Assembly (NCBI GenBank): GCA_036426205.1
Contig: WSYH01002423.1
Coordinates: forward strand, 4,662-68,661
Origin: Ascaphus truei
Taxonomy: Eukaryota > Chordata > Amphibia > Anura > Ascaphidae
Direction of reading: 5' to 3'
Length of the DNA: 64,000 nucleotides
Of the stretch, positions 1 through 53,049 are shown one piece after another; within the stretch, counting starts at the first letter, position 1; each line of letters opens with the position of its first letter. The translations under genes were made by a program, and so were the position numbers. A model generated the notes under the pieces. It was not told the DNA's origin, ran no database searches, and was given only the letters and a program-made list of their open reading frames with translations.

Positions 1-600
1 GTTGGAGGGGGATGGTGGGATCAGACGCTGGCCTCCTGCTGAATCTTGTTACTGTAGCCCGCCCAGGGGCAGATTAACAACACAATGATTAGATTAGGGT
101 TGAATGAGCCAGCCGATTGACGCTTGGCCAAGGAGGGATTTAAAACTCTAAGGGAGGGGGTGGGTGGCTGAAATAGCTGGGACTGTACTGTCACAGTATT
201 TCCAAAGGCAGTCAGGTCACCCTAATAATTGCATGAATAAACCCCCAAAGACAAGCCCCAAATACAGTACAGTATACTGTATACTGCATATACAGTACAG
301 AGCTGTATATTGTATTATAAATAAATAATCATACAGTACTGTATGTATTATTGTGTGTTGATGTTTTGAATTGCAGTTCACTTGAAATGTTTCACCATTG
401 TATTGTACTGTATTTGTAAATAAAAGTTTTTTGTGGCGACTTCAGCAATAAAAGAACTGGTTAATTTATCTCACACTCAGTACTACAAACTGCTTTTTGC
501 TGCCAGACAGCAAAGGCGCAAGACCAGCAACATTGTAAAAAAAGAGCAATGAGCGCGCAATTGGCGTGGGAACTTCTGTTCTATGGCCCCTAGAAATAAT
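1..600 (-). mobile_element. End of a second copy of the Tc1-like element
   Basis: Read in reverse complement, this segment matches about 24890-25378, the left inner part of the large element. Shared stretches include the CCGATTGACGCTTGG block near 114, the AATAAAAGAAC region near 447, the run ending in TGTAAAAAAAGAGCAATGAG near 533, and CAATTGGCGTGGGAAC near 559. Homology stops near 600. The rest of this copy lies left of the window. TACAGTA/TACTGTA motifs crowd 264-345, as in the full copy. The only open frame here (466-675, minus) runs through the terminal repeat and is not a gene. Confidence 0.8.
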
Positions 601-679
601 ATTCTTTATTTTATTTATAAACTCACATTTATAAACCCCTTCACCCACCCCCGCTACCCACAATAAAGCGGGCACGGTG

Positions 680-795
680 GGTTAACACCTCATAAAGGGG
701 TCTGTATCTCGGGGAGCAGGGGGTCTCCGGACCTGAAACCAACGCGGTTCAGCTCCCGAGACCCCATGCACATCTACACTAGGAATAAAAATGTA
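680..795. repeat. Fragment of a foldback repeat family
   Basis: The stretch with 'ggggtctgtatctcgggg' and 'acgcggttcagctc' is half of the palindromic repeat seen complete at 33905-34160 and 34196-34610, and partly at 54450-54560. No coding content. Confidence 0.6.
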
Positions 796-840
796 TTTCA
801 AATGTATTTATTTGTATTTATTTATTTATTTATTTATTTA
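796..840. repeat. (ATTT)n microsatellite
   Basis: Imperfect then perfect TATTTATT repeats abut the broken 3' edge of the L1 remnant. Confidence 0.9.
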
Positions 841-1923
841 GTCTAGCAGTTGTTTGAGTATATGTGCCTGTTTATTAGCTTTGTGCAGGGTGGAGAGTTC
901 TGCTATTTGGGTTTCTAAGGCCTTAGTTTTTTCCTCTCTTTCCCTTTTCCGTTTGGCTGCCAGATTCATCAATGTCCCCCTGAGAGTCGCCTTATGGGCT
1001 TCCCATAATGTAGCTTGTGATGCCACACTGCCCTCATTCTCCTCAAAATATTCCTGAATTCTAGCTCCTACTTCTCTTCCGAGATCCGGGATCTTTAACA
1101 GGATCTCATTTAGTTTCCAGTTCGCTCTAGGTCTATCCAACGGGATTAGTGTGCACCGCAGCTCTATTGGTGCATGGTCTGACCATGAAATATCATGGAT
1201 CTCTGTGCGAGAGACCCCAGGGACCACACCATTAGACACGAGGAAGTAGTCTATCCTACTGTATGAGTTATGTGGGTGAGAGTAGAAAGTATACTCTCGT
1301 TCTCCTTGATGTAGTTCTCTCCATATGTCAATCAGTTGACAATTTGCAATACCTTTTGTTAGAGTTAGTACGTCCTGTCTGTGTTGTTTATTAGTGGTCG
1401 TGCAACGGTCTAGGTTAGGGTTAAGAACTCTGTTCCAGTCGCCTGCCATTATGATATTGCCTTTTGCAACTTTACTTAGTTTATTGAAGAAGCTATTGAA
1501 AAAGGATGTGGCATTATCATTCGGGGCGTATACAGTAGCGAATGTTATTGGGGATTCTCGGATGAAACCCGTGATGATCAGGAATCTCCCTTCTTTGTCC
1601 TGGTACGTTTTGTCATGTCTATATGGGATATAATTATGAATTAGAATGGCGACCCCTCATTTTTTAACTTGATCTGATGCTAGGAAATGGGTTCGGAAAT
1701 TTTTATCGAAATACTTGGGGAAGTTAGTTTGGGAGAAATGTGTCTCTTGTAGGAAGAGTACTTCTGCGCCCTTACGTCTATAATCTCTAAATGCAACTCG
1801 CCTTTTAGCCGGGCTATTCAGGCCCTTAACATTATGGGATATTAAAACTATATCCTTACTCATTAGTAGAGCTGTGCTGTTCCGGCTGTCGTAGTTGTTC
1901 TCTGCCGCCTCGGGCAAGTCCAC
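838..1923 (-). pseudogene. L1/Tx1-type ORF2, endonuclease part only
   Basis: Two reading blocks on the minus strand form an APE-type endonuclease, which nicks target DNA for LINE retrotransposition. The N-terminal block (1923-1657) has the NVKGLNSPAKRR and LFLQETH signatures; the second (1449-838) has GDWN, SRIDYFLVS and WSDHAP, then a basic coiled-coil-like linker. The reverse transcriptase that should follow is missing: the element stops at the ATTT repeat at 838. A stop or frameshift lies between the blocks. L1 copies normally lose their 5' end, so loss of the 3' part suggests later deletion or recombination. Related L1 copies lie at 37.2-40.9 kb and 49-51.3 kb. Confidence 0.85.
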
Positions 1924-2695
1924 TTCTGTGCTTCCAGTGAGCTCCAGCCACCTTTATCTTGCTGGCCCCATCTGTAGGGATGAAGGGAGGGGGACACACA
2001 CGAGGGAACATGGGGGTGAACATGTACACAACATCACAAGAAAACTCAGAAACAATCAAAACATATAAACTTTCTCGGCATTCTCTTTCCTCCCTCCTTC
2101 CGCCGAGATTTCCTCCTCTGGGTTTATAGTCCAGAATTCGAATGTTCGGACTCGAGGCCGGGTGTTTACCTCCTTTCCCCGAACATCCAACCCAGAGGGT
2201 TGTGCTAGTGTGCATAGGGAATTTCCCCCTATTAACTAACGCCAGGCCCATGCCGACTTCAGGGCAGGCTACCTCCCACTTCTCCCGCCTCTCCCCTCCT
2301 AATAAACGTAAAACTTCTTCTCACCCACTGAACTAAGGGTAAGCCAACCAACTCCCCGTGATCCTGTGTCCCTTATTACTATAGCGCTGGTCCTGTCGCA
2401 ATTGCAGTCCTTGGTCGTTTGTTACGGTGCCCCCTGGCTTCCTCCTTTCTGGGTTTTGTATCCCTTCCCCCCGCTCAGCTCTGCCTATTGTCTATTTCTG
2501 CCCGGGCTATTGCTCTATCTCATTTCACGGATGCTATTCCATTATCTTCTCTAAAAGTCTATTCCCTTGTCCTCCATCTGTCTTGGGCTCAGTACAAATT
2601 TCCTGCCTCCCTTCCTGTAACGTTCTCATACCTTCCTTCATTTCCCCCCCCTCCCCTTTCCTCTCCTTTCTACTTCCCCCTCGCTGTCTTAACAC
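1924..2695. other. Untranslated or inter-ORF L1 remnant, pyrimidine-rich
   Basis: CT-rich sequence upstream of the L1 endonuclease, in L1 orientation. It is probably the ORF1-ORF2 spacer or degraded ORF1. The overlapping short open frames at 2142-2855 have biased composition and no recognisable domain, so I do not call them genes. Confidence 0.35.
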
Positions 2696-2870
2696 TCATG
2701 TGTTTTTACACGGCATTGCAGTATTGCAGCCAGCCGGAATAAAATGCTTCAATCCCTGCCGGGAAAATAACGCTATACACTCTGGCAGAAAACGATCACT
2801 AACCTCAATACACCCTAGTATACTCGAATTCGCGGGACTAGCCGAGCGAGAATAAAGTGTGTTGCCACTG
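2696..2870. mobile_element. Terminal fragment of the Tc1-like/MITE family
   Basis: The reverse complement matches the left end of the large element (about 23991-24095) and the right halves of the MITEs at 37834-38229 and 51340-51736, including 'ggaataaaatgcttcaatcc' and the end AATAAAGTGTGTTGCCACTG. It is followed by TA at 2871-2872. It also shares the outermost ~75 bases that the copy at 23991 lacks. Only one end is present. Confidence 0.8.
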
Positions 2871-5030
2871 TACACAGTTCCGAGTTTTTACCCATATGGG
2901 GGTATAAAAAGGAAATCTCAAAAGAACCCTACTGAATATAAATATAATCTGCTATAGTCTTCTGACAGAAACTTTTAGAACACAAAATAGCATCTGATTT
3001 GCTGAAAGAACAACCTGTAGCATAAAAAAACTCATAGACACAGATTTAAAGGTGGGACACATTTGAGAGAAAAAGATGGTTAAAAATGATAAAATATTAA
3101 ATATTTGATCAACTTTTCAGAAAAATAATTCCATAGAGAACCCTCTAGTATACTGGCAGACCTGGCTAGGGGCCGTTTTCCTTGTCCGTTGCTTTACTGC
3201 TATTTCGAGGTCTGCACACTTATACATGGCTCAGCACTAGAGTTTCTGTGCTGATTACATTGGACTAGTGGTTACTTTTTCCACCTGTTCCCACTGCAAG
3301 ACACTAGTTTAGTGATTCTATGCAGTTCATCAGTGATCCAGAACATTACATTGTGTTCATACTATAGGATCTGAGCGTTTAATATTTGTTTTAATCCCCA
3401 TTATTTTACACGGAAAAAGTAAGATTTAAGTTTTAACCTCTTCGTTACCCACCCACCAGGTGTTTAGAGTGCTCATTCTGGGTTACTGTCCTCTGTTTAT
3501 TGGAACTCTATATTAATCAATTTACACCTTTTTCCATTTCAAGCCATATAACAAGCTCAAATAACTCTCTGGGCTTCTTACCAAAACCTTGTAACAGAAA
3601 AAAATGTTTAATTACTGGTTACTGCAATACAATTTGGGACAGCTTGAAATATGCAGCTCTTCACACAGCCCGACAATGTTACTGGTATTCAAAAATTAAA
3701 ACTGGATCTTTGTTACACAGAAAATTGTAGGCTTTAATATATACTTTTAGATAGTTTAGTTACTGGTTATACACAAAAAAGAGCACAGAGCGCAGACACA
3801 AAACAAACAGAATTTTACGCTTCTTTCACACATTCAACCAATTTTTTTTTACAAAAATAACAGACACATATTTTCTCACCTATTTTAATAAATAGGAAAA
3901 CAAAACAGTTTGATCCTGCAGATTAAATTAATAAAGATATCCTTTTTTTTTCTTCATATCATAATTAACTTTTTTTTTTTAAACTAATTTTTATAATGCT
4001 GAGCTTTTAGTTAGCTTTGTGTCTAGAATATATTTCGCCTGTTATTCTATATAACTTATTCACCTGATTTTATCTGTGGAGATTTAGAGGAAAAGAATTA
4101 TAATTCTGGTTAAGGAAATAAATCGCCTGGCCAGTACGATAAACATCCTTATTATTCCAGTGACTGGACTGTTTACAAAAATAATTCATCCTTTCTTTAT
4201 TCTTTTTCTCCACAGATACCCAAAACTTTTCCCTGCCCAGTGTAAATTAGTTTATATTATAGTGGTGGTGTACACCTTTTAAAAATTAAATTTCAACATG
4301 AACAATTAATTATATTCTTATTTTAGAATCATTTGCAAGTCCTGAATAGTCATTTTGTATACATACAATAAACCGGTATTCTTATTATTCAATGCAAATA
4401 ACACTTTCATATAGATAGAATTCACCCAGATTCTTACAAGCACACACACAGGGATTACTCAATCAATCAACCTTTTTTTTTTTTTTTACCATATCCATAC
4501 TTAAAAATTAAACATTCTGAGGGAAAAAGAAACCTATACCTGTTATACTCTTGTTTTCCACTTTTCAATTCAGACGGGAAAATATTATTAATTTAAACTT
4601 AATATATACTCATACTCAGTTAATATTGCACAAATAATTTGAGTTTGCATGTTCGTTTTTCCTAAGAGCCATGCTGCCATTCACGATTTTGGTACATTCC
4701 TATGCCTGTGTAAAAATAGCTGGAGGAAAAAAGGTGGGGGCTACTTGCAGCTGCTTATTACAATACATACAGGCGAGAGAGAGACAGCTGATTTTGCCAC
4801 TGACAGTGAGGGAGGGGGTTGTTCGAGGGCTGACAGGTTAGGGTAAGTTCATTAGATGACAAAATGTTAGTGCCCATAATGAGTTTATACAGGAAAGAAA
4901 TCTTAACACTTTATGCGCACGTATTAATAAACAATTATTAACTTAACTTTAAACAATACTTATGTTAATTTAACTTTAAACAATTTTTAACTTAACTTAA
5001 CTTAAATTGCCATCCTATTTGAAATCATAT
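2871..5030. other. AT-rich unassigned DNA, possibly retroviral interior
   Basis: No conserved protein is visible in any frame. Homopolymer runs of T and A are frequent. If the candidate LTR at 5230-5775 is real and points left, this would be its degraded interior. The 76-residue open frame at 3500-3730 has cysteine-rich composition but no family I recognise. Confidence 0.3.
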
Positions 5031-23515: not shown

Positions 23516-23568
23516 AGAGGAGGAGAGAGAGAGAGAGAGATAGAGAGAGAGAGATAGAGAGAGATATA
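23516..23568. repeat. (GA)n/(GATA)n microsatellite
   Basis: GAGAGA repeats with interspersed GATA just before the Env frame. Confidence 0.9.
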
Positions 23569-23570
23569 CT

Positions 23571-23990
23571 ATGGTTGTGGTGGAAGTGGGCACTAAGATT
23601 GTACCCTGCAATCACACTGCCCTTTGTTATCTGGGATTCATTCTTCCCACTTTCTATGTATCTGACACGTTACCCCAAGGGAAGCAGAGAAATCGAAAAG
23701 ATCTGACCAGGACCATTAGTCCAACCCGCATTGCAGCTGGGGTTTTTATACCTAGTTTAGGTGTTATGGATCTCTATTCTAAATTAAGTGATGTTATGGT
23801 AAATATTAATGATGCTCTTAATCAGACAAGTGATGCTATTATCCGTCTGACTAATGAACAAGAGCAGATCCGAACAGTATTATTACAGAATAGAATGGCT
23901 CTTGATTATCTGCTAGCCTCACAAGGAGGTGTTTGTAAACTTGTAGGACAGAAGTGCTGTGCCTATATTGAAGACGAGTCTGGCGGTTTT
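23571..23990 (+). pseudogene. Retroviral Env transmembrane subunit fragment
   Basis: An open frame shows the ectodomain of a gammaretrovirus-like Env: a heptad-rich stretch with QTSDAIIRLTNEQEQIRTVL, then LQNRMALDYLLA and a CX6CC motif (CKLVGQKCC), the hallmark of covalently linked SU-TM envelopes. Only about 30 residues of upstream Env-like sequence are seen and there is no signal peptide. The frame runs into transposon sequence at 23991, so the membrane anchor and tail are lost or displaced. Sequence after the transposon (31369-31420) is a possible continuation but this is weak. It is a relic. Confidence 0.8.
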
Positions 23991-24215
23991 GTATCGTTTT
24001 TGCCCGGAGTGTATTGCGTTATTTTCGCGCCCGTGATTTAAGCATTTTATTCCCGCTGTCTGCAATACTGCAATGCCGTGTAAAAACGCATGCGGGCGTT
24101 TGCGAGCTGTTGTCTTTGAAGTCTAATACCTTCGCGGTTCAACACAGTCTGTGCGTGCGCGCGCAGTAATAGTAAAATTGCAAATTTAATTTATTTTAAA
24201 GTACAGTACTGTACA

Positions 24216-24985
24216 TGCTCGGACACTGTTGGGGTGAAGTGAGGGGGTTCCTAACATCTGGGGGCACAATAAATTTTATTTCTAGGTGCCCTAGAACATA
24301 AGTTCCCACGCCAATTGGCCGTGAACTTGACCGAGGCCCTAAGTAGTTCCCACGCCAATTGCGCGAATATAATTTAAAATAATCAGTCCTGTGGGTCTGA
24401 GCGGGTTTAAATTCGCCTAGCCCTCATGCGGAAGGAACCTTGCCATAGTAGCAAAATGTCAGCCTTGCACGACCCCCGGAACCGGAGGTACCAAAAGACA
24501 GTTTAAAAGCACATTACCAAAGTGGCTTTTTTTCTGCCATGCAAGTCAATGGCAGAAACCTGAAATTTAACATTACCCTGACTCTGTTCTGTTGCCACGA
24601 GACGGTCGCAATTTGCCATGCAATCCTGCCGCAACTAGGACTACATGGTGACCGAATCTGAGCCCTCTAGGTTGAACAGAACCGGAGATATGGGTTCCAG
24701 GTTTCTGCTCATTCTGATTTAGCCGTTTCAAAGCAGTGCGGGTTTCTCCGCCATTACGCTCAATGGTAGGACCCTCCTCGCCGGCGTGACCCTTTCTCAC
24801 CGCCATTACTGCTCGGACCCTGTTGGGGTCAAGTGAGAGGGTTCCTAACATGTAGGGGCAAAATTAATTTTATCTCTAGGTGCCCTAGTACAGAAGTTCC
24901 CACGCCAATTGCGTGCTCATTGCTCTTTTTTTACAATGTTGCCGAGCTTGCGGCTTTGCGGTCAGGCAGTAAATAAACATTGCAG
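24216..24985 (+). repeat. Left long inverted repeat of the composite transposon
   Basis: It contains two direct copies of a block starting GCTCGGACMCTGTTGGGGT and running to CCCACGCCAATTG (24213-24318 and about 24805-24910). Three segments (about 24250-24378, 24593-24672 and 24866-24985) recur inverted at 29665-29995. The short open frame at 24573-24851 (minus) is within this repeat and is not a gene. Confidence 0.85.
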
Positions 24986-26115
24986 TGTAATTCAACATGT
25001 TCTTTAATTGGTGGAGTCAGTACAAAAACATTTATTTACAAATACTGTACAATGTTGAAACATTTAAAGTGCACAGCAATTCTAACCATCAACACACAAT
25101 AATTTGGGGGTTGTATTTAGGGGTTTATTCATCAAATTATTATAATGAACTGCCTTTTGAAATTACAGTGCTGTTAACTATTTCAGCCACACACCTCCAG
25201 AGTTTTTAATCCCCCCCTAGCCAAGCGTCAATCGGCTGAGTCACCCTAGCCTACCAACCCCCACTCTCCACTGGGTTGTTAATCTTCTGCATATTGCCAT
25301 TGTGTTCTTAATCCGCCCATAGCCGAGCTACAAAGACTCAGTACGCCTGCGTCTACAGTAATCACACCATCCCCCTCCCCCAACCCTTATCAGGAACCAA
25401 AAAATACAAATATAAAAATAATCAGGAATAATACATAATGCAGTCTTTATTAAGTTATTTTGGCAGATTGAAATTGGATAACCATTTGGAAAACATTTGG
25501 AAAACATGGGGAAACATGAGTAATGCACATTTATAAGAATATTATTTAATACTATATACAGTACTGTAATGTACTGTATAATATATATACTATTCCGTCT
25601 TTATCTTTTCCTCATTCTGTCTGCAGTACAGTAGTTCATTGAGAGAGGAGAGGTTTTGTGTACATCATTACTGCTGTTTATATACTGTACATTTTACTGT
25701 ACAGTACAAGCAGATTAGACTGGACGCAACAACCCAACCCCCTTTTTCCTGAAACGACAAGAAAACAAAAAATTAGTGCAATTACTGTACTGTACTGTAC
25801 TGTATGTGCATACTGTACTGTATTATGGCAGAACTACTGTAGGTGGCTGGTGCAGCTTTCTCTGGAAAGAAAAAAATGGAGCAGTTAGTACGCAGTTACT
25901 GTAGTACTGTCAAACTAGTCTACTGTATACTGTAACTACTGTATACTCTGACTACTGTTAAATTCTATGTACTGTACTGTAACCTGATGGCTGGTGCTGC
26001 TCTCTCTGTAAAGAATAAACTAACTACTGTAGTGTATACTCTTACTATCTGGAAAGAACAATTCTGTGCCATACTTACCTGTATCATACTGTACTTACAA
26101 TACTAAAGCACAGTA

Positions 26116-27799
26116 CTACTTTCCTGATGCTTGCCCATTACGCGCGATGACAATGGGCAACACAGTGGCAATATGGTCTATATATTTATTGCAGCGTTCC
26201 ACGGTGAGTACATCATTCCAAAAACTCATTATGCCTTTCAACAACTCATCCTTTTTGGAGGGTTTCGCCACTTTCCGGATATGGTCCTTCAGCTGATGCC
26301 AGACCATTTCGATCGGATTGAAGTCTGGCAATCTGTGATTGGAAAGAAAGGACAATTGGTTTAAGAGCTAAAAACAGTGGGGAACAAAAATGGGACATGG
26401 TCTACTGCACTTACTCCGCTGGCGTCTTCACCCAGTTGATGCCGCGCTCAAGGATATGCGCCGTTGACGCGGTGTGCTTGGGATCGTTCTCCTGGTAGAA
26501 GCGGTGACCATCGGGGAACTCGCGTGTGATGTATTGCACTATCTCGGGCACAATGTTGTCTTGGAAGAAAGCTTTATTCATGATTCCTATAGCAAGAAAA
26601 GAAAAGTGCTCAAAAAACTGCACAATAGTACTGTACAGTGCATACGGTAAGGCAACACTAGTCAAGTACAGTGCATTAGGCGACATTATATTTGATAAAT
26701 TTTACCTACAAAGATGACAATGCATCCCGGTCCATGCCTAGAGATGGCACCCCACACATGCAGCTTCACAGGGTGTTTTGGCCGCGGCTTCAAAGATATG
26801 CGGCCTTTTTTGTGGAATGCAAATCTTGCAAATCTCTCCAGCGACACAGTAGACTCATCTGTGAAGATGCAATCCTGGAAAGTCTCCCCACTTTCAATCC
26901 ATGCCTGGGCCTGGAGCACTCTTTTGATTTTGTTTGCGTCCCGTATCATGGGGTACGCTCTGTAATGACAAGGAAAAAAAAATTAGCGGCACAGTGCAGT
27001 ACAGTTTGCTAAACAACACTTTTAACTCCTGTACTGTCCAGTACTAACCTCACACATCCATATTTCCATCCAATGCTGCGTCTCATCTTCTTTATGCTGC
27101 TCTCGGATACAGTCAGATTCTGCTTTTCCTGCAGAGTGTTTTTAACCCTTAATGCACTCCTCTCATCATTCTCCTCACTTATTTTGTCCACCAGAAGAGT
27201 TGTCTCCCTACAATGTAAAGAAAATATATTGTTTTATTAATATGAAGCAATATAAAATGTATATACTGTAAATATAATGTTGTAATATTAAATAAATTGA
27301 AATATATATAAAATATAGACTGCTGTACTATAAATATAAATATACACAATAAATATACTGTTGTAATATAAATATAAATATACATCCTATATATACCGTT
27401 GTAAGATAAATTGAAATATACAAAAAATGTATACTGCTGTACTATAACTATAAATAGACAAACTATGTTGTAATATAAATCAACAGAAATAACAACAGTA
27501 TTACAATAGATACAGAACTGTACTGTAGATGTACTGTACTGTATGAACAGTACAGTACGTACAGTACAGTTTTCTATATTTTTTTTTGTTAAGTTTTATA
27601 ATTATACTTACGCGTTAGTAACCCTTGGTGCCTTTTTCCGGTCTCTGTTTTTTCCGTATGCATGATAGCACACGGTGTTTGATGGCACAATGGGGCCAGA
27701 AGTAGCTAACCAGCATTGGATAGCAGCAATTCGGTGTCCGCTCGTGTACATCTCCTTAATTCGCATGCTGAGATCCTTTGAAATCTTTTTAACAGGCAT
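26116..27799 (-). CDS. Tc1/mariner-family transposase, five exons, apparently intact
   Basis: Cut-and-paste transposase acting on the element's ends. Exons by GT/AG sites: 27799-27612, 27207-27049, 26959-26706, 26586-26415, 26332-26116. Donors are GTAAGT, GTTAGT, GTAAAA and GTAAGT; phases match across every junction, giving 329 codons with no stop. Residues about 1-110 hold helix-turn-helix-like DNA-binding segments ([31 protein letters not shown]). The DDE core has IFTDES (D150), [19 protein letters not shown] (D235) and DFNPIEMVW (E266). By this model 30 residues separate D235 and E266, fewer than the 34 of classical Tc1. The ATG is preceded by a CAG acceptor, so a 5' non-coding exon is possible. 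It is transcribed away from the BEN gene. Confidence 0.88.
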
Positions 27800-28052
27800 T
27801 GCTGCGAGTACAAAGAAATACAAACACAAGAATGTGTATTCGATGTTTAGTCGATGTGTATTCTATGTGCAATCAATACACAAAATGGATGGTGTATTTA
27901 TACGGTAATGACTCACATTAGAGTATGCCCACTTTCAACACCTGTACCTGGTCGCCATGCATAAAAGGTCACACACTTTGCATAGGCCACCACTCCATGA
28001 TCTTTATCTGAACTTGCCCTTGTCCAGATACTGCTTTGTGCCACCTGCTTCC
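27800..28052. promoter_or_regulatory. Divergent promoter between transposase and BEN gene
   Basis: About 250 bases separate the start codons of two head-to-head genes. A TATTTATA sequence lies near 27895. Several ATGs and short frames occur but the gap shows no separate gene. A bidirectional promoter is inferred from layout only. Confidence 0.5.
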
Positions 28053-29443
28053 ATGGAGCATCCCCGGTTCTATGGACGCAAGAACCCACTCACCTCTGCC
28101 GTGCCTGTCATGCTGAAAAAGCGAAAGGCGGTTGCCGTTTCCACGCCAAGGGCAAAGCGACAGGCTAAGGCCAATAAAGAAAACCTTCTGCTGACCCCAA
28201 AGGTTAAGGGTTTTCTTAGACGTAAGCCTCATTATGTGAAGAAGATATACGGCGATGTACTCTCGACACAAAACAATTGGCAGCCAACCCATCGAATCCG
28301 CAGACCACTTCCTCCCATATGCTTCGACGACTCTGCTGTAGCTGTCCCGGAAAACCTGTCTTCTCCACCCCCATCTTCTCCGGTTCCATCTGACGACGCT
28401 GCCGCCTCTGAAATCCACGGGTCACTGTCTCCTCTGCTCTTGGACGACTCTGCTTCTCGGCTGGAAATCCAAAGGTCACTTTCTCCATCCCTCTTCGACG
28501 AAGCTGCCGCTTCTCCTCTACCGGGTATCCACAGGTCACCTCCTCCACTCTCCATCGATGCCGCTTCTGTCCATGGAACCCCCATCTCATCCTACGTTGC
28601 ACCCATCTCCCCAGATGTCCAGACGCCATGCACAAGAAGCAGCTCGTTAGACCGGATGCTGAATGGGATAAGTGTGGATCTCCCCGGGAATTCTATTGTG
28701 CTGGCAAAGATAGATCTGCTTCTGGAGACAATGCTAAATGTGGAGCAACGGATGCTACAAATGGAACAATAGATGGATTGACGGATGGAGAAGATAGAGG
28801 CTGACATAGCGGGCATATATTATTTGCTCGGTGCTAATGCCCCTGTTTCCCCGCCGCCAGAGCAGGGGGCGACATGGATGTGATGAATGAGACCTTCGAC
28901 CTCCTTCCATCAGCAAGCGCACCCCCTCCACCAGAAGATGTAGTGTACATGTATGCCGTTGAGGAGGACATGACAACCCCGTCAAGACCACACCAGGAGA
29001 CAACACGGCGACCATGACCGGAGGAAAGCTTCCTCCCAGACAACCTACCATTGCCCGTCGCCTCAAGTACACCCACTCCCAAAAGACCTACACCCGCTCG
29101 CATCGAAACGGTGCCCGACATCACCCTGTGCGATCTGCCACCGGCGCTCAGGGAGAATTATAGGGTGAAGAGTGCTGGTGTACCCCACAAGTATGCCTTG
29201 ATCATTTTTCAGCACCATGTTCACTACTCGTTGTACTGCGTGTGGGTGTTCAAAGTGAACTACGATGGGAATCGCGCAAAAAAGGCCCTTCCTGTCAATT
29301 TATGGAAAAACATTGTGGAAGAAATGCGGCGCTTTTATCCAGTTACAGATCCTGTAATGAAAGGCGTTAGAGACTGCCTTAATGGCGTTTTGCGCCATGC
29401 AAGGAATCGGCCATGGACGGACAATGTGGAGGACTTTCAGTGA
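28053..29443 (+). pseudogene. Coiled-coil and BEN-domain protein, transposon-borne, decayed
   Basis: BEN domains bind DNA or mediate chromatin contacts in transcriptional repressors. From the ATG at 28053: a basic N-terminus (KKRKAVAV, TPRAKRQAKANKEN), then an acidic Ser/Pro repeat region with recurring 'IHGSLSP/IQRSLSP/IHRSPPP' units, then a coiled coil (LAKIDLLLETML, VEQRMLQMEQ) that continues past two in-frame stops at 28770 and 28779 as RMEKIEADIAGIYYLL. The frame shifts near 28870; after another stop at 29015 the C-terminal domain follows with NYDGNRAKKALPVNL, IVEEMRRFYP, VRDCLNGVLRHARNRPW, matching the BEN pattern. AATAAA signals lie near 29527 and 29552. A short intron ending at the CCGCCGCCAG near 28850 could remove some lesions; I could not find a convincing donor. 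Confidence 0.75.
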
Positions 29444-29664
29444 GACCATACTGTTGTGCTGAACTGTATTGTACTGTACATGTTTTGCCCTACTGTTACT
29501 TAAAATGCTTCAACATTGTATTTGTAAATAAATGTTTTTGAACTTACTGCACCAATAAAAGAACATGTTGATTTGTCTTACTGTACTGTACATTGTTTCC
29601 ATTTGCTCCTTTGATAGTACTGTATAACAAAATACAGTGTTTGTAGAATGTAGAGGCTTGCTGC

Positions 29665-29995
29665 ACTGTTTATTTACTGCCTGACCGTAAAGCCGCAAGC
29701 TCGGCAACATTGTAAAAAAAGAGCAATGAGCACGCAATTGGCGTGGGAACTAGGTCAATTGGCGTGGGAACTTCTGTTCTAGGGCACCTAGAGATAAAGG
29801 GCTCAGATTTGGTCACCATGTAGTCCTAGTTGCGGCAGGATTGCATGGCAAATTGCGACCCTCTCGTGGCAACAGGTTATTTTAAATTATATTCGTGCAA
29901 TTGGCGTGGGAACTACTTAGGGCCTCGGTCAAGTTCACGGCCAATTGGCGTGGGAACTTCTGTTCTAAGGCACCTAGAGATAAAATTATTTTTGC
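29665..29995 (-). repeat. Right long inverted repeat of the composite transposon
   Basis: It is the reverse complement of the left repeat with two internal stretches missing (equivalents of about 24379-24592 and 24673-24860). Shared blocks include 'gcaattggcgtgggaact', 'ggtcaccatgtagtcctagt' and 'gggcctcggtcaagttcac'. Confidence 0.85.
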
Positions 29996-30281
29996 CCATT
30001 GATGTTAGGCACTGTATACCACTGTACAGTATACTGTAGAAGACACATAATGAAACGATACTGAACATGTAGAATAAATGCATAGATTTATTTTTTCGGG
30101 TTTATTACACAGTATACTGTACGGCCGGAAAACATCAGCATACAGTACAATATTATCCATCGAAATCCCCCCATTAGCCGTTTTCTTATCTGAGGAAAAA
30201 CAAAAAGAAATGTTTTAATGTACAGTTATGGTCAGCCTCTAAAAAAGTACCCAGCCAGTCCCACCAAAATAATACAGCAAC

Positions 30282-30860
30282 TCACCATAGAATTTCCCAT
30301 TCAGCTGGCGCGGGCGCCGGTCCACTGCCAGTCCAGCTTTCTTGATCATCCACGTCGATAGTCTGCAGCGGGACTAGTCCACCTGTAGTCAGCAGGTGAG
30401 GCTGGAAATCGCTTAGGTACATGCAAGCTTCATCAAAACTGCACACGAAATCCGGCTCAGGCTCAGGGTTGTCACTGACAGTGGGACAGTCATTGGAAGC
30501 CGGTGCTGGTGCTGGTGCATTGCTTGGCAGCGACAGTCGCTTCTTAGTTGGTTTTAACACGACCCTTTGCCTTTTGCCGCCTCCATGATCATAGATACGA
30601 GAAAAATCCGGTGATACACACCAATACCCTCCAACAAATTGGGGCTCAATACGGTGAAAACAGGGATCACTACAAAACCTTTTCCTTACTGCACGCTTCC
30701 ACGTATGAGGAGTTGGCGAAAATTTGTAAAAGTCATAGTTTTCGATAAAATACTGATAAATTTTAGCAACTGTTGCCATCTTATCATCTGTTGCATTAAT
30801 CGCGGCACATATCAAATACGCGTAACTTCTGTTTTTGGAAAGCGGGCTGCACTTGAACAC
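30282..30860 (-). CDS. Forkhead-domain protein encoded in the transposon
   Basis: A winged-helix forkhead domain fills residues about 8-95: SYAYLICAAINAT (helix 1), MATVAKIYQYFIENYDFY (helix 2), HTWKRAVRKRFCSDPCFHRI (helix 3 region), GGYWCVSPDF (wing). The order and spacing match FOX proteins. The usual recognition motif WxNSIRHNLS is WKRAVRKRFCS here, so the Asn and His that read DNA are replaced by basic residues. A basic patch (KRQRVVLKPTKKR) and a Pro/Ala/Asp-rich tail follow. A donor (CTATG|GTGAGT) near 30286 and an acceptor near 30190 suggest a short last exon that creates a stop at once; AATAAA lies near 30105. No in-frame ATG is visible: an ATG at 30868 is one frame off and a stop precedes 30860, so a frameshift or an upstream exon is needed. 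Confidence 0.78.
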   Translation of the reverse strand: MFKCSPLSKNRSYAYLICAAINATDDKMATVAKIYQYFIENYDFYKFSPTPHTWKRAVRKRFCSDPCFHRIEPQFVGGYWCVSPDFSRIYDHGGGKRQRVVLKPTKKRLSLPSNAPAPAPASNDCPTVSDNPEPEPDFVCSFDEACMYLSDFQPHLLTTGGLVPLQTIDVDDQESWTGSGPAPAPAEWEILW

Positions 30861-31069
30861 TCATGGCGGGTGGGTCTCTGGAGAATACTGTAACTGAAAC
30901 TGGTCTTTGTCTTTCTTTAATATGTATGAAAAGCCTACTGTAAATTGATACATTTTTGCAACCTTCAGTCGCAAGGCCAAGGCCAAGGCCAAGTTACAAT
31001 AGCACACTGTGGTACAGTATCTTTTTTAAATGAAACACCTGCAAGCTGACACATTACTGATTCGGCGCA

Positions 31070-31291
31070 TTACAATTCATGAATTTCTGCCATCTGGCGG
31101 ACACACGAAGCATTGCAGCCTATTTAAATCCGAACCATTATCAATAAACCCATCAACCGTGCGTCAGCCGGGCATGACCCCTGGCTGGGAACGCAAAATG
31201 AACGCGGCATGCTCCAGGTGAACAGCGTGGCATTCCAGGAACAAGCCAGGTAAAAGCCTGTGATTTGTTAGAATAAAAGCTGCCGCAGCAG
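31070..31291 (-). repeat. Right terminal region of the composite transposon
   Basis: The reverse complement aligns along its length with the left halves of the 396-bp MITEs: CTGCTGCG terminus, 'acctggcttgttcctggaatg', 'gccaggggtcatgcccggct', 'ataggctgcaatgcttcg', 'agaaattcatgaattgtaat'. It holds no gene and is probably the transposase-binding end. Confidence 0.8.
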
Positions 31292-31293
31292 TA

Positions 31294-37149: not shown

Positions 37150-40100
37150 ATCTTACATGATCCAATCACAAAAAAAAGCAAAAAATTCAGGGAAATAATA
37201 GAAGAATTCTCCCTGGTCGATGTGTGGAGAGCTCAGCACCAGGGTCAAAGGGATTACACCTTCTTCATTGCCCCTCATCAGTCCTACTCGATGTTAGACT
37301 ACTTTCTGTGTACCAACAACATACTCCAGGATTCCTCCCACTCCAATATCGGCCCAATTACATGGTCTGACCACGCCCCAGTGGAACTCACCCTCACCCT
37401 TCCCTTTGTCAAAAACAATCCCTACAAATGGAAGTTGAATGATTCCCTACTCAACTGCCCAGAGACAGAGACAAATATAAGATGCAAACTCTCCTCCTTT
37501 TTCCAGATAAACGCAGGTACGGTCTCGGCCCCGGCTATGCTTTGGGAGGCACACAAGGCCTCAATTAGAGGAGAATTAATCTCGATATCGGCCTATAAGA
37601 AAAAACAAAAAGCTAAACTCCAAACTGAACTAATAGATAAAATCAAACACCTAGAGCAGCAACACAAAACAACAGCATCCAAAAAAATACTAAAGCAATT
37701 AAACCAAACGCGAGCAGCTCTCAAACAAACACAATTAGAGGAAGTAGAAAGGGCCCTAAGATGGACAAAACAAAAATTATTTGATAAAGGAAACAAAGCC
37801 GATAAGCTCTTAGCCTCGAAACTTAGAGGCATACTGCTGCGACACACTTTATTAGAGCAAATACCCAGTATGTACCTGGCAGATACCTGGAATGCGCCGC
37901 TCCTCACCTCTGACAAGCCCCGTTGCATTTGCCTTCCCAGCCTGGGTTCATGCCTGGCTGATGGGCGGCTGATCTGTTAAATGATAATGATTAGGATTTA
38001 ATAGGCTGCAATGCTTCGCGTGTCTACCAGATGGCATAAATTCATGAATTGTAATGCAGTATATATATATATACTGTGCAGTATTGGAGCCACGGGAATA
38101 AAATGCTTCAATCCCTGCTGGGAAAATACCTCAATGCACTCGGGCAGAAAACAGTCACAAACCTCAATACACCCGGGTATACCCGAATTCGTGGGACTAG
38201 CCGAGCTCGAATAAAGTGTGTCGCCAGTGTACGGGTAAAGTCACAAAATATCCAAAATCCGCACAAAATCAGGGAAAATCTCATATGACAAAAAAGAAAT
38301 AGCACACGAATTTGCTGACTACTACTCTCAACTGTATAACCTACATCCTCTGGGCCAAAATCCGACCCCCTTAGATACAATCTCAAAATACCTGGGGGAG
38401 TGCTCCCTCCCCTCCCTTTCACAGGCCGAACTAGATAAACTAAATAAAGACATTACCCTAGAAGAACTAACCGAAGCCATTAGCTCCCTCAAACCGGCAA
38501 AAACTCCGGGCCCGGACGGATTTTCTAACACTTACTATGACATTCATGCTTACCCTGTCCCCTTACTTGCTTGACATGTTCAACTCTTTTTTACAAGGAG
38601 AGCCAATCCCCGCTACCATCACTGCAGCAAACTTAGCCATTATCCACAAGGAGGGTCGAGACCCGCTCCTTTGTGGCAACTACAGGCCAATATCCCTACT
38701 TAACTCAGATCTCAAAATTTACAGCAAGATACTAGCAAACAGGCTCAACCCAATTCTCCCCAGACTCATTAATACAGATCAAGTAGGTTTTGTGTCAGGA
38801 ATACAGGCCTCTGACAATACACGCAAAATAGTGGATATCATCGACCACGTGCATCTCACAGGAACCAATGCAATCAATTGATCCTGAGCATCGACGGGCG
38901 AAAAAGCGTTCGACAGGATCAGATGGTCCTTCCTAGACCAAACAAGCTGAAGTTTGGTTTTAGTGGTCCCTATTTAGAGGGTGTTAGAGCCCTCTACCAA
39001 AAACCCACAGCATATGTAAAATTTCAGGAGGACTATCAGACCCAATTACAATAGAAATGGGACCAGACAGGGCTGCCCGCTATCCCCACTCCTATTTGCC
39101 CTAACAATTGAACCATTGGCAGCCAAAATTAGACAAGAAAAGGGATCAAGGGGATTTCGATCTCCACAAAGGAATACAAAATTTCCCTATTGCGGACGAT
39201 GTGATCCTGACCCGCTGACCCCCACATCTCCCTCCCGAACCTACAAAAGGTACTCCACCAATTTGGAACAGTCTCTGACTATAAAATAAATATAGACAAG
39301 TCAGAAGCCACTTAACATATCCCTCCCAAACACAACATGGAAGCTTTTGCAGTCCAATTATAAATACAAGTGGAGCACCACATACATCAAATACCTAGGT
39401 ATAAGAATTTCGAGCTCCCATGGATCCCTCTATCAACACAACTACCCCCCACTATTTGATCAAATTAAAAAAGACTTAGAGTCGTGGAAAAAACATCAAA
39501 TATCATGGTTCGGGAGAATAATCTCCCTCAAAATGAACATCCTACCTCGGCTGTTGTACTATTTCCAAACCCTCCCGTAGTCGTCCCACTAACAGCCATG
39601 AAAAATGTACAGGCCCAAATGTTCCAATTTATCTGGAATGACAAGAGATCGAGGGTCCCCAGATCGGTAATGTTATCAGCCAAACTAAGAGGCGGTCTGG
39701 GGGTCCCCGATGTGGTCAGGTACTACTTCGCAGCCCAGCTAAAGCAAGCCGTAGTTTGAAATTGCGACCAGGCAGCGGTCCGCTGGCTCGAGATAGAAAC
39801 ACATTACGCAGCCCCGCTACCACTTCAGCTACTGCTGTGGTCCCAAGGAGAAAAAGAAGGAGGATCAAGGAGGTTTGATCTAGGAGCAATGAGATGCACG
39901 TGGGACTCGTGGCTGAAAAGCAAAGGGAAGTATGGCCTGCTAAACACCCCCTCACAAATCACCCCGATCTTTGGGAACCCGAACTTCCCGCCCGGGTGCT
40001 CCAAAAAGCAATTTGCCCAATTTCAGGGGCTTGGAATAAGGCTGGTTGCAGACTTGCTGAAAAATGGAGAGATTCTAACATTTAAAGAGGTACGGGACAA

Positions 40101-51335: not shown

Positions 51336-51339
51336 TGTA

Positions 51340-51736
51340 CTGCACCGACACACTTTATTCGAGCAAATACCCAGTATGTACCTGGCAGATACCTGGAATG
51401 CGCCACTCCTCACCTCTGACAAGCCCCGTTGTGTTTGCCTTCCCAGCCTGGGTTCATGCCTGGCTGATGGGCGGCTGATCTGTTAAATGATAATGATTAG
51501 GATTTAATAGGCTGCAATGCTTCGCGTGTCTACCAGATGGCATAAATTCATGAATTGTAATGCAGTATATATATATATACTGTGCAGTATTGCAGCCAGC
51601 GGGAATAAAATGCTTCAATCCCTGCCTGGAAAATACCTCAATGCACTCGGGCAGAAAACAGTCACAAACCTCAATACACCCGGGTATACCCGAATTCGTG
51701 GGACTAGCCGAGCTCGAATAAAGTGTGTCGCCAGTG
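51340..51736. mobile_element. 397-bp MITE of the Tc1-like composite family (copy B)
   Basis: Flanked by TA at 51338-51339 and 51737-51738. Ends CTGCACCGACACACTTTATT and, reversed, CACTGGCGACACACTTTATT. It differs from copy A by only a handful of bases over ~396, so both moved recently relative to the surrounding decay. Confidence 0.92.
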
Positions 51737-53049
51737 TACTTTAGAACATAGCTTAGCACTCCAGAATGAGGATTTCCACCTCTTGATCAGAGATAACACT
51801 CCAACTATTCTTTTTTTTTTTGGGAGGTGTGGGGGATGACGAAGATATGAGGTGGTGGTGTAGGGTTGGGGGGGGGGAGAGGTAACAGTACAGACAAAAT
51901 ACATTACGAAAAACAAAAAATACTTTGTTGGGATCCTATTGATCACTAGCTCTTCTGCCCTTGGGTTGTTAGTGGGTCATAAAACAAAGGAGCATGTCCA
52001 GGCTAACCACAGAAAAGGGCTTTGTAGATTGCATAGTAGAACTAAACAAAAATAGATCAAGGTGACTGCTGCTTCATAAACAAAAAATGAGAAAACTCAC
52101 CAGCAAGAGGTAACTAAAAACACCTTATTAGAACTACATAAAAACATTTGAACAGAAAAAAACTCTCCTCCCAAATGTTTCACGCTCCTTAATGGCGCTT
52201 TTTCAACTCCTTGAAAAAATGCCATTAAGGGGCGTGAAACGCGTGGGAGTTTTTTTCTGTTCACATATGTACTGATCGAAGGGACGCATCGGGGGTACAA
52301 TGAAGGATGTATGCAGTCGAGCAGCGTTTGTACAGCCAGTGCCAATCTCAAGGAGTTGCAGGACAGTGAACAATAGTGAGTACAGGCTACTCCATACCGG
52401 TAAATCTGGAGGCATGGGTAAAAGCATTTGGCTGATATATTCCCTTTTGATGTCTACTCCTGCCCTCCATTTGTCAATATGAATTATCTAGCTGCATCAA
52501 TTATCTTCCAGAACCCAAGTTTATAGGCTCCGTCTATATACTATATCCATTTAAAAACCTATTTGGTTGCTTAACACCCTAGAGCTTGAAATCGGTTTGG
52601 TTCAAAGTTGCATAGTAGAACTACGCTGGTCTATTTGAGGTAACATGAGTTTGCCCGAGGTCGCTTACCAGCCAGCGACTAAAACATATTTCAATATTAA
52701 ATTAACATCTAACTTATAATTTCTAACATTTCCAACCATATTTTTTTCCCCTCCCTTCCTTCCTTTCTCTCTTTCTTCCTTCTGGGTCAGTGAGTTAAGA
52801 CAGAAAACCAGCTCCCCTTTTTGTGGCAGACCTTTCAGTAACACATGTGCATTAATTGGAACGGACATTGGCGTTTTGCTAATGCCTATTAGTTAACTCG
52901 TCTCTGCATAATGAAAATCCCTGTTAATACATCTAACATGATGATGCTAGTTTGAGGAACTGGTATTTTTGAATACAGAGAAGGAGCAGCTCAGTGGAAT
53001 ACAGCAGCGTGGAATACAGCAGTGCACACGAAAACGGCACCGTGATTTC
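51737..53049. other. L1-linked DNA with a probable small insertion
   Basis: 51745-52075 is probably L1 inter-ORF sequence. 52080-52500 has 'gcgtgaaacgcgtgggag' and a foldback ('caaatgtttcacgctcctta' against 'taaggggcgtgaaacgcgtg'), resembling Penelope-like ends. No gene. Confidence 0.35.

What the first reader, a model, noticed from the sequence alone, without database searches (positions are those of the whole stretch)
23991..31291. A Tc1/mariner-like transposon that carries a BEN gene and a forkhead gene
Seen: a five-exon DDE transposase, a coiled-coil plus BEN-type gene and a forkhead-type gene lie between ends that match TA-flanked MITEs in the same window. Known: Tc1/mariner elements normally encode only a transposase. 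Inference: two DNA- or chromatin-binding domains were captured, perhaps to target, silence or protect the element. It may be an undescribed lineage of multi-gene mariner elements.
Basis: partly seen in the sequence, partly recalled or inferred. Interest (0 to 1): 0.93.

Follow-up and report, generated by a model that had tools for sequence, protein, structure and literature searches.

The report
Frog transposon carrying two extra genes
In the genome of the tailed frog, a cut-and-paste jumping gene of the Tc1/mariner type, whose relatives usually carry only the gene for their own cutting enzyme, repeatedly travels with two more genes: a forkhead DNA-binding gene and a coiled-coil gene that may bind DNA.

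Summary
The region is a decayed copy of a real, repeated, three-gene Tc1/mariner-type element in the tailed frog Ascaphus truei. The five-exon DDE transposase and the forkhead gene are firm. The coiled-coil gene is real and often open, but its 'BEN' label is only weakly supported (no Pfam or PDB hit; borderline profile match). The right terminus is exact; the left TIR is missing (cut about 74 bp inside the family end). In this copy the two extra genes are broken and the transposase has lost a catalytic D. In the 17 best-scoring places of the genome, 17 hold the transposase, 14 the BEN-like gene, 11 the forkhead, and 8 all three; 4 have both TA-flanked ends. The forkhead lies beside the right end in 10 of 11 and in 4 of 4 others sampled. 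The core is flipped in 3 of 17; one 3.2-kb derivative carries only the forkhead. So this is no chance pile-up. Between some subfamilies the BEN-like gene shows constraint (dN/dS 0.45, 95% 0.28-0.75); the forkhead result (0.67) is inconclusive. I found no described vertebrate Tc1/mariner like it in the papers searched; ciliate TBEs are the nearest parallel. What the extra proteins do is untested.

The parts
23980..24092 (+). Left end region of the element, truncated: about 74 bp including the terminal inverted repeat are missing; abuts an ERV env-like fragment
   Evidence: Alignment with copy 2 and two MITEs; left ends of 9 other loci
24216..25103 (+). Left subterminal arm, an inverted repeat of the right arm; carries CCCACGCCAATTG repeats at 24305, 24349, 24899
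26116..26332 (-). Transposase exon 5 (catalytic E in FNPIE)
26415..26586 (-). Transposase exon 4 (second catalytic site; QEN in this copy, QD in 15 of 17 loci)
26706..26959 (-). Transposase exon 3 (first catalytic D, IFTDEST)
27049..27207 (-). Transposase exon 2
27612..27799 (-). Transposase exon 1 (start codon at 27799)
28053..29443 (+). Coiled-coil plus BEN-like gene, one long frame in open copies; here broken by three stops and one frameshift
   Evidence: open copies
29498..30012 (-). Right subterminal arm, inverted copy of the left arm; CCCACGCCAATTG repeats on the minus strand at 29735, 29756, 29898, 29942
30282..30863 (-). Forkhead gene (frameshift near its 5' end in this copy)
31067..31291 (+). 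Right end region with terminal inverted repeat GAATAAAAGCTGCCGCAGCAG, followed by TA at 31292-31293
1..2872 (-). Second, diverged copy: left TIR at about 2850-2872, L1-like insertion, left arm at 347-603; runs off the window start, beyond which the record reads N
37832..38231 (-). MITE of a related family, with TA at both ends, made of the two end regions only
51338..51738 (-). Second MITE of the same family

Best explanation
A dead copy of an autonomous, three-gene Tc1/mariner-type transposon of Ascaphus truei. One complete copy (C3a) is 8174 bp: TA | short imperfect TIR | inverted subterminal arm | transposase (minus, 5 exons) | coiled-coil BEN-like gene (plus) | inverted arm | forkhead gene (minus) | TIR | TA. 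SHOWN: the unit recurs at several loci with these ends; the transposase keeps its acidic DDE residues in 15 of 17 loci; the core is found inverted between the arms in some copies; a shortened TA-flanked derivative with forkhead only exists; the BEN-like gene shows constraint between some subfamilies. INFERRED: the element is or was autonomous; the transposase cuts at the TIRs and inserts at TA; the BEN-like protein, joined through its coiled coil, binds the CCCACGCCAATTG repeats of both arms and holds the ends together or sets their chromatin state; the forkhead protein, whose recognition helix stays basic (RAVRK where FOXA2 has NSIRH), acts on element or host chromatin to aid expression or target choice. 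The single confidence given is for identity plus a role of the extra genes in the element's life. Separately I would put identity at about 0.95, some role for at least one extra gene at about 0.65, and these particular roles at about 0.25.
For: Recurrence: 17 places scored by the whole-element DNA search, all fetched; transposase 17 of 17, BEN-like gene 14 of 17 (one a remnant, one displaced, one decayed), forkhead 11 of 17, all three 8 of 17, both TA-flanked TIRs 4 of 17. Forkhead beside the right end in 10 of 11 and in 4 of 4 more picked from 150. Of the 150 best forkhead hits 12 have one of the 150 best BEN-like hits within 9 kb, 0.14 expected; 11 of 12 on the downstream side. TIR consensus. 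Catalytic second D kept in 15 of 17, E in 17 of 17. Closest solved structure is Sleeping Beauty, E 1.7e-13. Constraint: BEN-like subfamily A vs C dN/dS 0.45, bootstrap 0.28-0.75. Arm repeats: TTCCCACGCCAATTG 8 times in the window, all 8 in the two element copies; CCCACGCCAATTG in both arms of C3a, C2, C4a and C3b and of the forkhead-only derivative L039. The fly coiled-coil/BEN protein Insensitive binds CCAATTGG as a dimer and is multivalent (PMC6317261, passages).
Against: 6 of 17 places lack the forkhead, though these 6 also lack their own right end. The 17 were the best matches to the whole element, so the shares are not genome-wide frequencies. Variants among recent copies look neutral for all three genes. 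BEN-like B vs C gives 0.74 (0.36-1.90), not significant. Forkhead dN/dS between subfamilies is 0.67 with an interval reaching 1.18. BEN homology is not established (global mode). No empty insertion site was shown: the genome query did not complete and none lies in the fetched DNA. The full palindrome CCAATTGG occurs 0-1 times in each of the four copies with both ends, and twice in L039 and in the window copy; the other repeats hold CCAATTG followed by another base. In the TBE parallel the accessory proteins did not alter transposase DNA binding in E. coli.
Confidence: 0.7

Rival explanations
1. The forkhead and BEN-like genes are passengers: captured once in a master copy and carried along without doing anything for the element.
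For: Variants among recent copies are neutral in all three genes; forkhead constraint is not significant, nor is BEN-like B vs C (0.74, 0.36-1.90); a forkhead-only derivative moved without the other genes on board.
Against: BEN-like gene under constraint in two of three subfamily comparisons (A vs C 0.45, interval 0.28-0.75; A vs B 0.50, interval 0.25-1.04, P(w>=1)=0.031), lower in the C-terminal part, 0.31-0.33. Two forkhead subfamily consensuses both keep a full open frame over 82 differences; chance of no stop in a neutral simulation 0.035, but the copies behind it were picked as open ones, so this is biased towards openness.
Confidence: 0.25
2. A composite: a transposase/BEN-like transposon with long inverted arms once inserted into a separate TA element carrying a forkhead gene, and the composite then spread as one unit.
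For: The arms flank the transposase and BEN-like genes, with forkhead outside them; the core flips within the arms.
Against: The arms persist in a derivative without the core (L039); in the window the arms match only the second element copy and form no MITEs of their own, while the outer ends do. It would describe origin only, since the unit now recurs whole.
Confidence: 0.12
3. A chance pile-up of unrelated insertions in this window.
For: The window is crowded with other elements (read by eye), and this copy lacks its left TIR.
Against: Same genes, order and ends at several unlinked loci.
Confidence: 0.02

Closest known systems
Tc1/mariner (IS630-Tc1-mariner) transposons, Tc1-like DDE transposases
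   Same: TA at both ends, short TIRs, DDE_3-type transposase; best solved relative Sleeping Beauty; relatives named from fishes at 40-57% identity
   Different: Two further genes, four introns in the transposase, long inverted subterminal arms, 8 kb size; 32 instead of 34 residues between the second and third catalytic residues, a gap shared with P0006-P0008, P0011, P0012 and P0022 but not with P0014, P0027-P0030, P0035 and P0036 (counted by eye)
Oxytricha TBE elements (ciliate Tc1/mariner with accessory genes)
   Same: Tc1/mariner-type transposase plus two accessory proteins, called surprising for Tc1/mariner and reported under purifying selection (PMC12242761: passages and section 20)
   Different: Ciliate, tied to programmed genome rearrangement; accessory proteins are a 57-kDa zinc-finger/kinase protein and a 22-kDa protein without predicted domains, not forkhead or BEN-like
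Insensitive/Elba-type BEN proteins
   Same: Insensitive has a coiled coil and a BEN domain and binds CCAATTGG (PMC6317261, passages), a core similar to the element's arm repeats
   Different: Host chromatin proteins, not transposon-borne; homology to the element protein not established
FOX (forkhead) transcription factors
   Same: PF00250 at 51 bits for the window gene and 63 for P0001; closest solved structure FOXA2, E 6.6e-9
   Different: Short (about 195 aa), highly diverged, recognition helix changed, at least 150 scored genome matches at 88-100% identity; P0002, whose gene model keeps only part of the domain, scores below the Pfam cut-off

Membership tests
Tc1/mariner superfamily | DDE transposase of the IS630/Tc1 type | tested here: met
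   Sleeping Beauty match E 1.7e-13; DDE_3 on exons, below Pfam's cut-off when exons are scanned singly; many relatives annotated with PF13358/PF01498; residues
Tc1/mariner superfamily | TA dinucleotide at both ends of the insertion | tested here: met
   TA at both ends in 4 of 4 fetched copies with both ends and in L039; that it is a duplication of one TA was not shown because no empty site was found in the fetched DNA
Tc1/mariner superfamily | Terminal inverted repeats | tested here: met
   Left CAGTGGCGACCAACTTTATTC, right reverse complement CTGCTGCGGCAGCTTTTATTC, imperfect
Tc1/mariner superfamily | Transposase as the only gene (typical, not strictly defining) | tested here: not met
   Three genes between the ends; TBEs are a known exception
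BEN domain proteins | Sequence match to the BEN profile or to solved BEN domains | tested here: inconclusive
   No hit in Pfam or BEN chain in PDB; hhalign against three BENs 0.2%; against six BEN domains 19.2 locally, above 100 of 100 shuffles, but probability only 6%; global score 4.8, reached by 30 of 100 shuffles; true BEN families left out score 23.7-41.3 locally and 18.5-36.9 globally
BEN domain proteins | BEN fold | tested here: inconclusive
   AlphaFold models of mean pLDDT 40 and 44 only; no Foldseek hit at E <= 0.001
Forkhead domain proteins | PF00250 above the gathering score | tested here: met
   51.4 bits vs 27 for the window gene; 63 bits for P0001, 14.7 for the partial model P0002
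Forkhead domain proteins | Sequence-specific DNA binding | not testable with these tools
   Recognition helix altered (alignment)

The most novel reading that the evidence does not exclude
A vertebrate DNA transposon that works as a three-protein system: the transposase cuts, an element-encoded coiled-coil BEN-like protein binds CCAATTG repeats in the two arms and bridges or insulates the ends, and an element-encoded forkhead opens or selects chromatin; the forkhead-only derivatives are amplified because they bring their own chromatin factor.
Probability: 0.2. Interest if true: 0.9.

Novelty: new variant of a known kind. Interest (0 to 1): 0.76.

Why it matters
Tc1/mariner elements are described as typically carrying only a transposase (PMC12242761). 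A vertebrate lineage that carries two extra genes, one a transcription-factor domain, each with at least 150 scored genome matches, would give a tractable case of a transposon recruiting host-type DNA-binding proteins. It also supplies a concrete source of many forkhead genes in a frog genome, some of which annotation lists as hypothetical proteins.

Tried and rejected
Chance pile-up: rejected by recurrence. BEN identity by Pfam, PDB, hhalign, two AlphaFold models and Foldseek: not settled. Extending copy 2 beyond the window start: the record reads N there, left alone. Viral contig scans with P0007 and P0040: no relative. Selection among recent copies: neutral; pairwise means of 0.57-0.75 come from related, decaying copies and I do not rely on them. 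Forkhead of C1b vs the main type: 0.82 (0.52-1.32), a decayed copy. Empty insertion sites: not found in fetched DNA, not answered genome-wide. Literature: no vertebrate Tc1/mariner with forkhead or BEN genes in the listings (open-licence PMC papers only; titles and abstract starts seen; one search was rejected for a bad term).
Full report
What is in the window. On the minus strand, 27799-26116, five exons joined by GT..AG introns encode a 329-residue transposase without a stop. Its closest solved relative is Sleeping Beauty (E 1.7e-13). Of 35 database relatives the three named A. truei are 74-90% identical and those named from fishes 40-57%, over varying coverage. Gene models P0005 and P0006 agree with three of the four exon junctions; the fourth is not covered. 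On the plus strand, 28053-29443, lies a gene for a serine/proline-rich, coiled-coil protein with a conserved C-terminal domain (read by eye); in this copy it has three in-frame stops and one frameshift. On the minus strand, 30863-30282, lies a forkhead gene (Pfam E 1.2e-13) with a frameshift near its start. Inverted arms at 24216-25103 and 29498-30012 flank the first two genes; the three longest matching blocks are 81-141 bp at 91-98%, and a whole-arm alignment gives 418 of 519 ungapped columns identical. The forkhead lies outside the arms but inside the outer ends.

Ends. The outer end regions match a second copy at the window start (left region, 87%) and two MITEs of about 400 bp (37832-38231, 51338-51738) at 77-84%, a related but diverged family. 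The left end is not a terminus; in 9 other loci the family continues about 74 bp to TA|CAGTGGCRACCAACTTTATTC. In the window this piece is missing and an env-like ERV fragment abuts.

The genome. The genome search answered: the window is part of a 2.82-Gb genome. Its contig C4 has 248,248,485 bases and C8815 has 11,241, equal to the contigs of the A. truei proteins P0001 and P0002, so the species is A. truei. The whole-element query gave 18,714 first-look candidates, of which 17 were scored; the listing shows 17 places and I fetched all of them, the window's own among them. They are the best matches to the whole element, so the shares below are not genome-wide frequencies. Counts: transposase 17 of 17; BEN-like gene 14 of 17 (a remnant in C4a, displaced in C14582, decayed in C13990); forkhead 11 of 17; all three 8 of 17 (C3a, C6119, C2, C6, C4a, C3b, C4c, window). 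Both TIRs with TA are present in C3a, C2, C4a and C3b; C3a is 8174 bp including both TAs. Of the 11 places with forkhead, 10 have the right end, or in C1b part of it, beside the gene; in C4c only the 3' part of the gene remains. The 6 places without forkhead also lack their own right end: C13990 runs into N, C3233 ends with its contig, C13678, C1a and C4b stop within the right arm or are disrupted, and C14582 is rearranged. Few copies are free of damage: full-length BEN-like frames without stops in C13678 and C3b, full-length forkhead frames without stops in C3a, C2, C7799 and C14929; stops are counted in 9 of 17 transposases.

Flips and derivatives. In C7799, C14929 and C4c the transposase core is inverted relative to the forkhead end, as expected from recombination between the inverted arms. 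The forkhead search (P0001) gave 15,350 first-look candidates and 150 scored hits at 88-100% identity. All 4 have the right-end TIR beside the forkhead. L039 is a complete 3,207-bp TA-flanked derivative with forkhead and both arms but no transposase or BEN-like match; L042 is flipped; L040 and L041 were cut off by the 3.5-kb stretch. The BEN-like search (P0040) gave 23,593 candidates and 150 scored hits at 82-98%, many in open frames of about 470-550 codons. A second forkhead subfamily (P0002) gave 14,264 candidates and 150 scored hits. First-look numbers are loose and are not copy counts.

Co-occurrence. Between the lists, 12 of 150 forkhead hits have a BEN-like hit within 9 kb, against 0.14 expected at random; in 11 of 12 it lies downstream of the forkhead, and in 10 of 12 on the opposite strand, as in the window. 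The lists are the best hits only, so the true share is unknown.

Is the second protein BEN? The pattern (YALxxF...KKALP..L...I..EM.R.YP...GVRD..NGVLRHAR, read by eye) looks BEN-like. But Pfam finds nothing, PDB searches find no BEN chain, and hhalign against three BENs gives 0.2%. Against six BEN domains the local score of 19.2 exceeds all 100 shuffles (maximum 16.4) at 6% probability; true BEN families left out score 23.7-41.3. In global mode the element scores 4.8, which 30 of 100 shuffles reach, while the true families score 18.5-36.9. AlphaFold models are poor (pLDDT 40 and 44) and Foldseek finds nothing significant. I call it BEN-like; my own estimate that it is BEN is about 0.65.

Selection. 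Pairwise dN/dS among the fetched copies averages 0.57-0.75, but variants classed against the consensus are indistinguishable from neutral for all three genes, as expected for copies decaying after insertion. For the BEN-like gene I compared 12 open copies over the last 221-224 codons (10 of the 150 hits, plus C13678 and C3b), grouped by identity: consensus A vs C gives 0.45 (0.28-0.75), A vs B 0.50 (0.25-1.04), B vs C 0.74 (0.36-1.90); the C-terminal 108 columns give 0.33, 0.31 and 0.59. Two forkhead subfamilies (8 and 6 copies, 185 codons) give 0.67 (0.40-1.18). Absence of stops in the consensus has neutral probability 0.035 for forkhead and 0.13 for BEN-like A-C, but these copies were picked as open, which biases that test. 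So constraint is supported for the BEN-like gene in part of the comparisons and only suggested for the forkhead.

How it may work. Transposase: the D in QDN is kept in 15 of 17 loci (E in the window copy, Y in L016) and the last E in 17 of 17. In the window TTCCCACGCCAATTG occurs 8 times, all in the two element copies, and CCCACGCCAATTG recurs in both arms of the four copies with both ends and of L039. Drosophila Insensitive, a coiled-coil BEN protein, binds CCAATTGG as a dimer and is multivalent (PMC6317261, passages only). That the element's own coiled-coil BEN-like protein binds these repeats and bridges the arms is my inference; the full palindrome is present 0-1 times in each of those four copies and twice in L039 and in the window copy. 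The forkhead recognition helix is altered but basic; its targets are unknown.

Known relatives. Oxytricha TBE elements are Tc1/mariner elements with two accessory genes, described as surprising for the superfamily and under purifying selection; the accessory proteins did not change DNA binding in E. coli (PMC12242761, passages and section 20). So the kind, Tc1/mariner with accessory genes, is known from ciliates; the vertebrate case and the forkhead/BEN-like cargo did not appear in the open-licence papers searched. An anuran TE survey includes A. truei (PMC12822217, passages).

Verdict. A real, repeated, three-gene Tc1/mariner-type element; the window holds a dead, left-truncated copy. It is a new variant of a known kind. 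The roles of the two extra genes are open and testable.

Noticed in passing
window 23544-23975: An open stretch resembling the transmembrane env part of an endogenous retrovirus (recognised from recalled motifs) directly abuts the truncated left end. Described only.
   Followed up: no
window 838-2690: An L1-like endonuclease reading frame (recognised by eye) sits inside the second element copy, between its left end and its left arm.
   Followed up: partly
L026 (beyond the window start): The stretch adjoining the window start reads N in the held genome, so copy 2 cannot be followed.
   Followed up: no
window 15945: A TIR-like stretch TACACTACCGACACACTTTATT points to a further related MITE family.
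   Followed up: no
L018, L025, L011, L028: Stretches with the related family's TIRs or end regions lie in or beside copies of the large element (in C14582 between transposase exons 1 and 2).
   Followed up: partly
P0022 (Danio rerio LOC326903, si:dkey-77f5.3): A zebrafish protein related to this transposase over 98% of its length at 40% identity, with two fewer residues between catalytic sites as in the frog; possibly a domesticated or surviving relative.
   Followed up: no
L020 (C1b): Carries the second, diverged forkhead subfamily next to a partial right end; no BEN-like match in the 9.9 kb fetched.
   Followed up: partly
L009 flanks: The most complete copy (C3a) is flanked by what looks like another Tc1-like transposase gene (22% identity match).
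   Followed up: no
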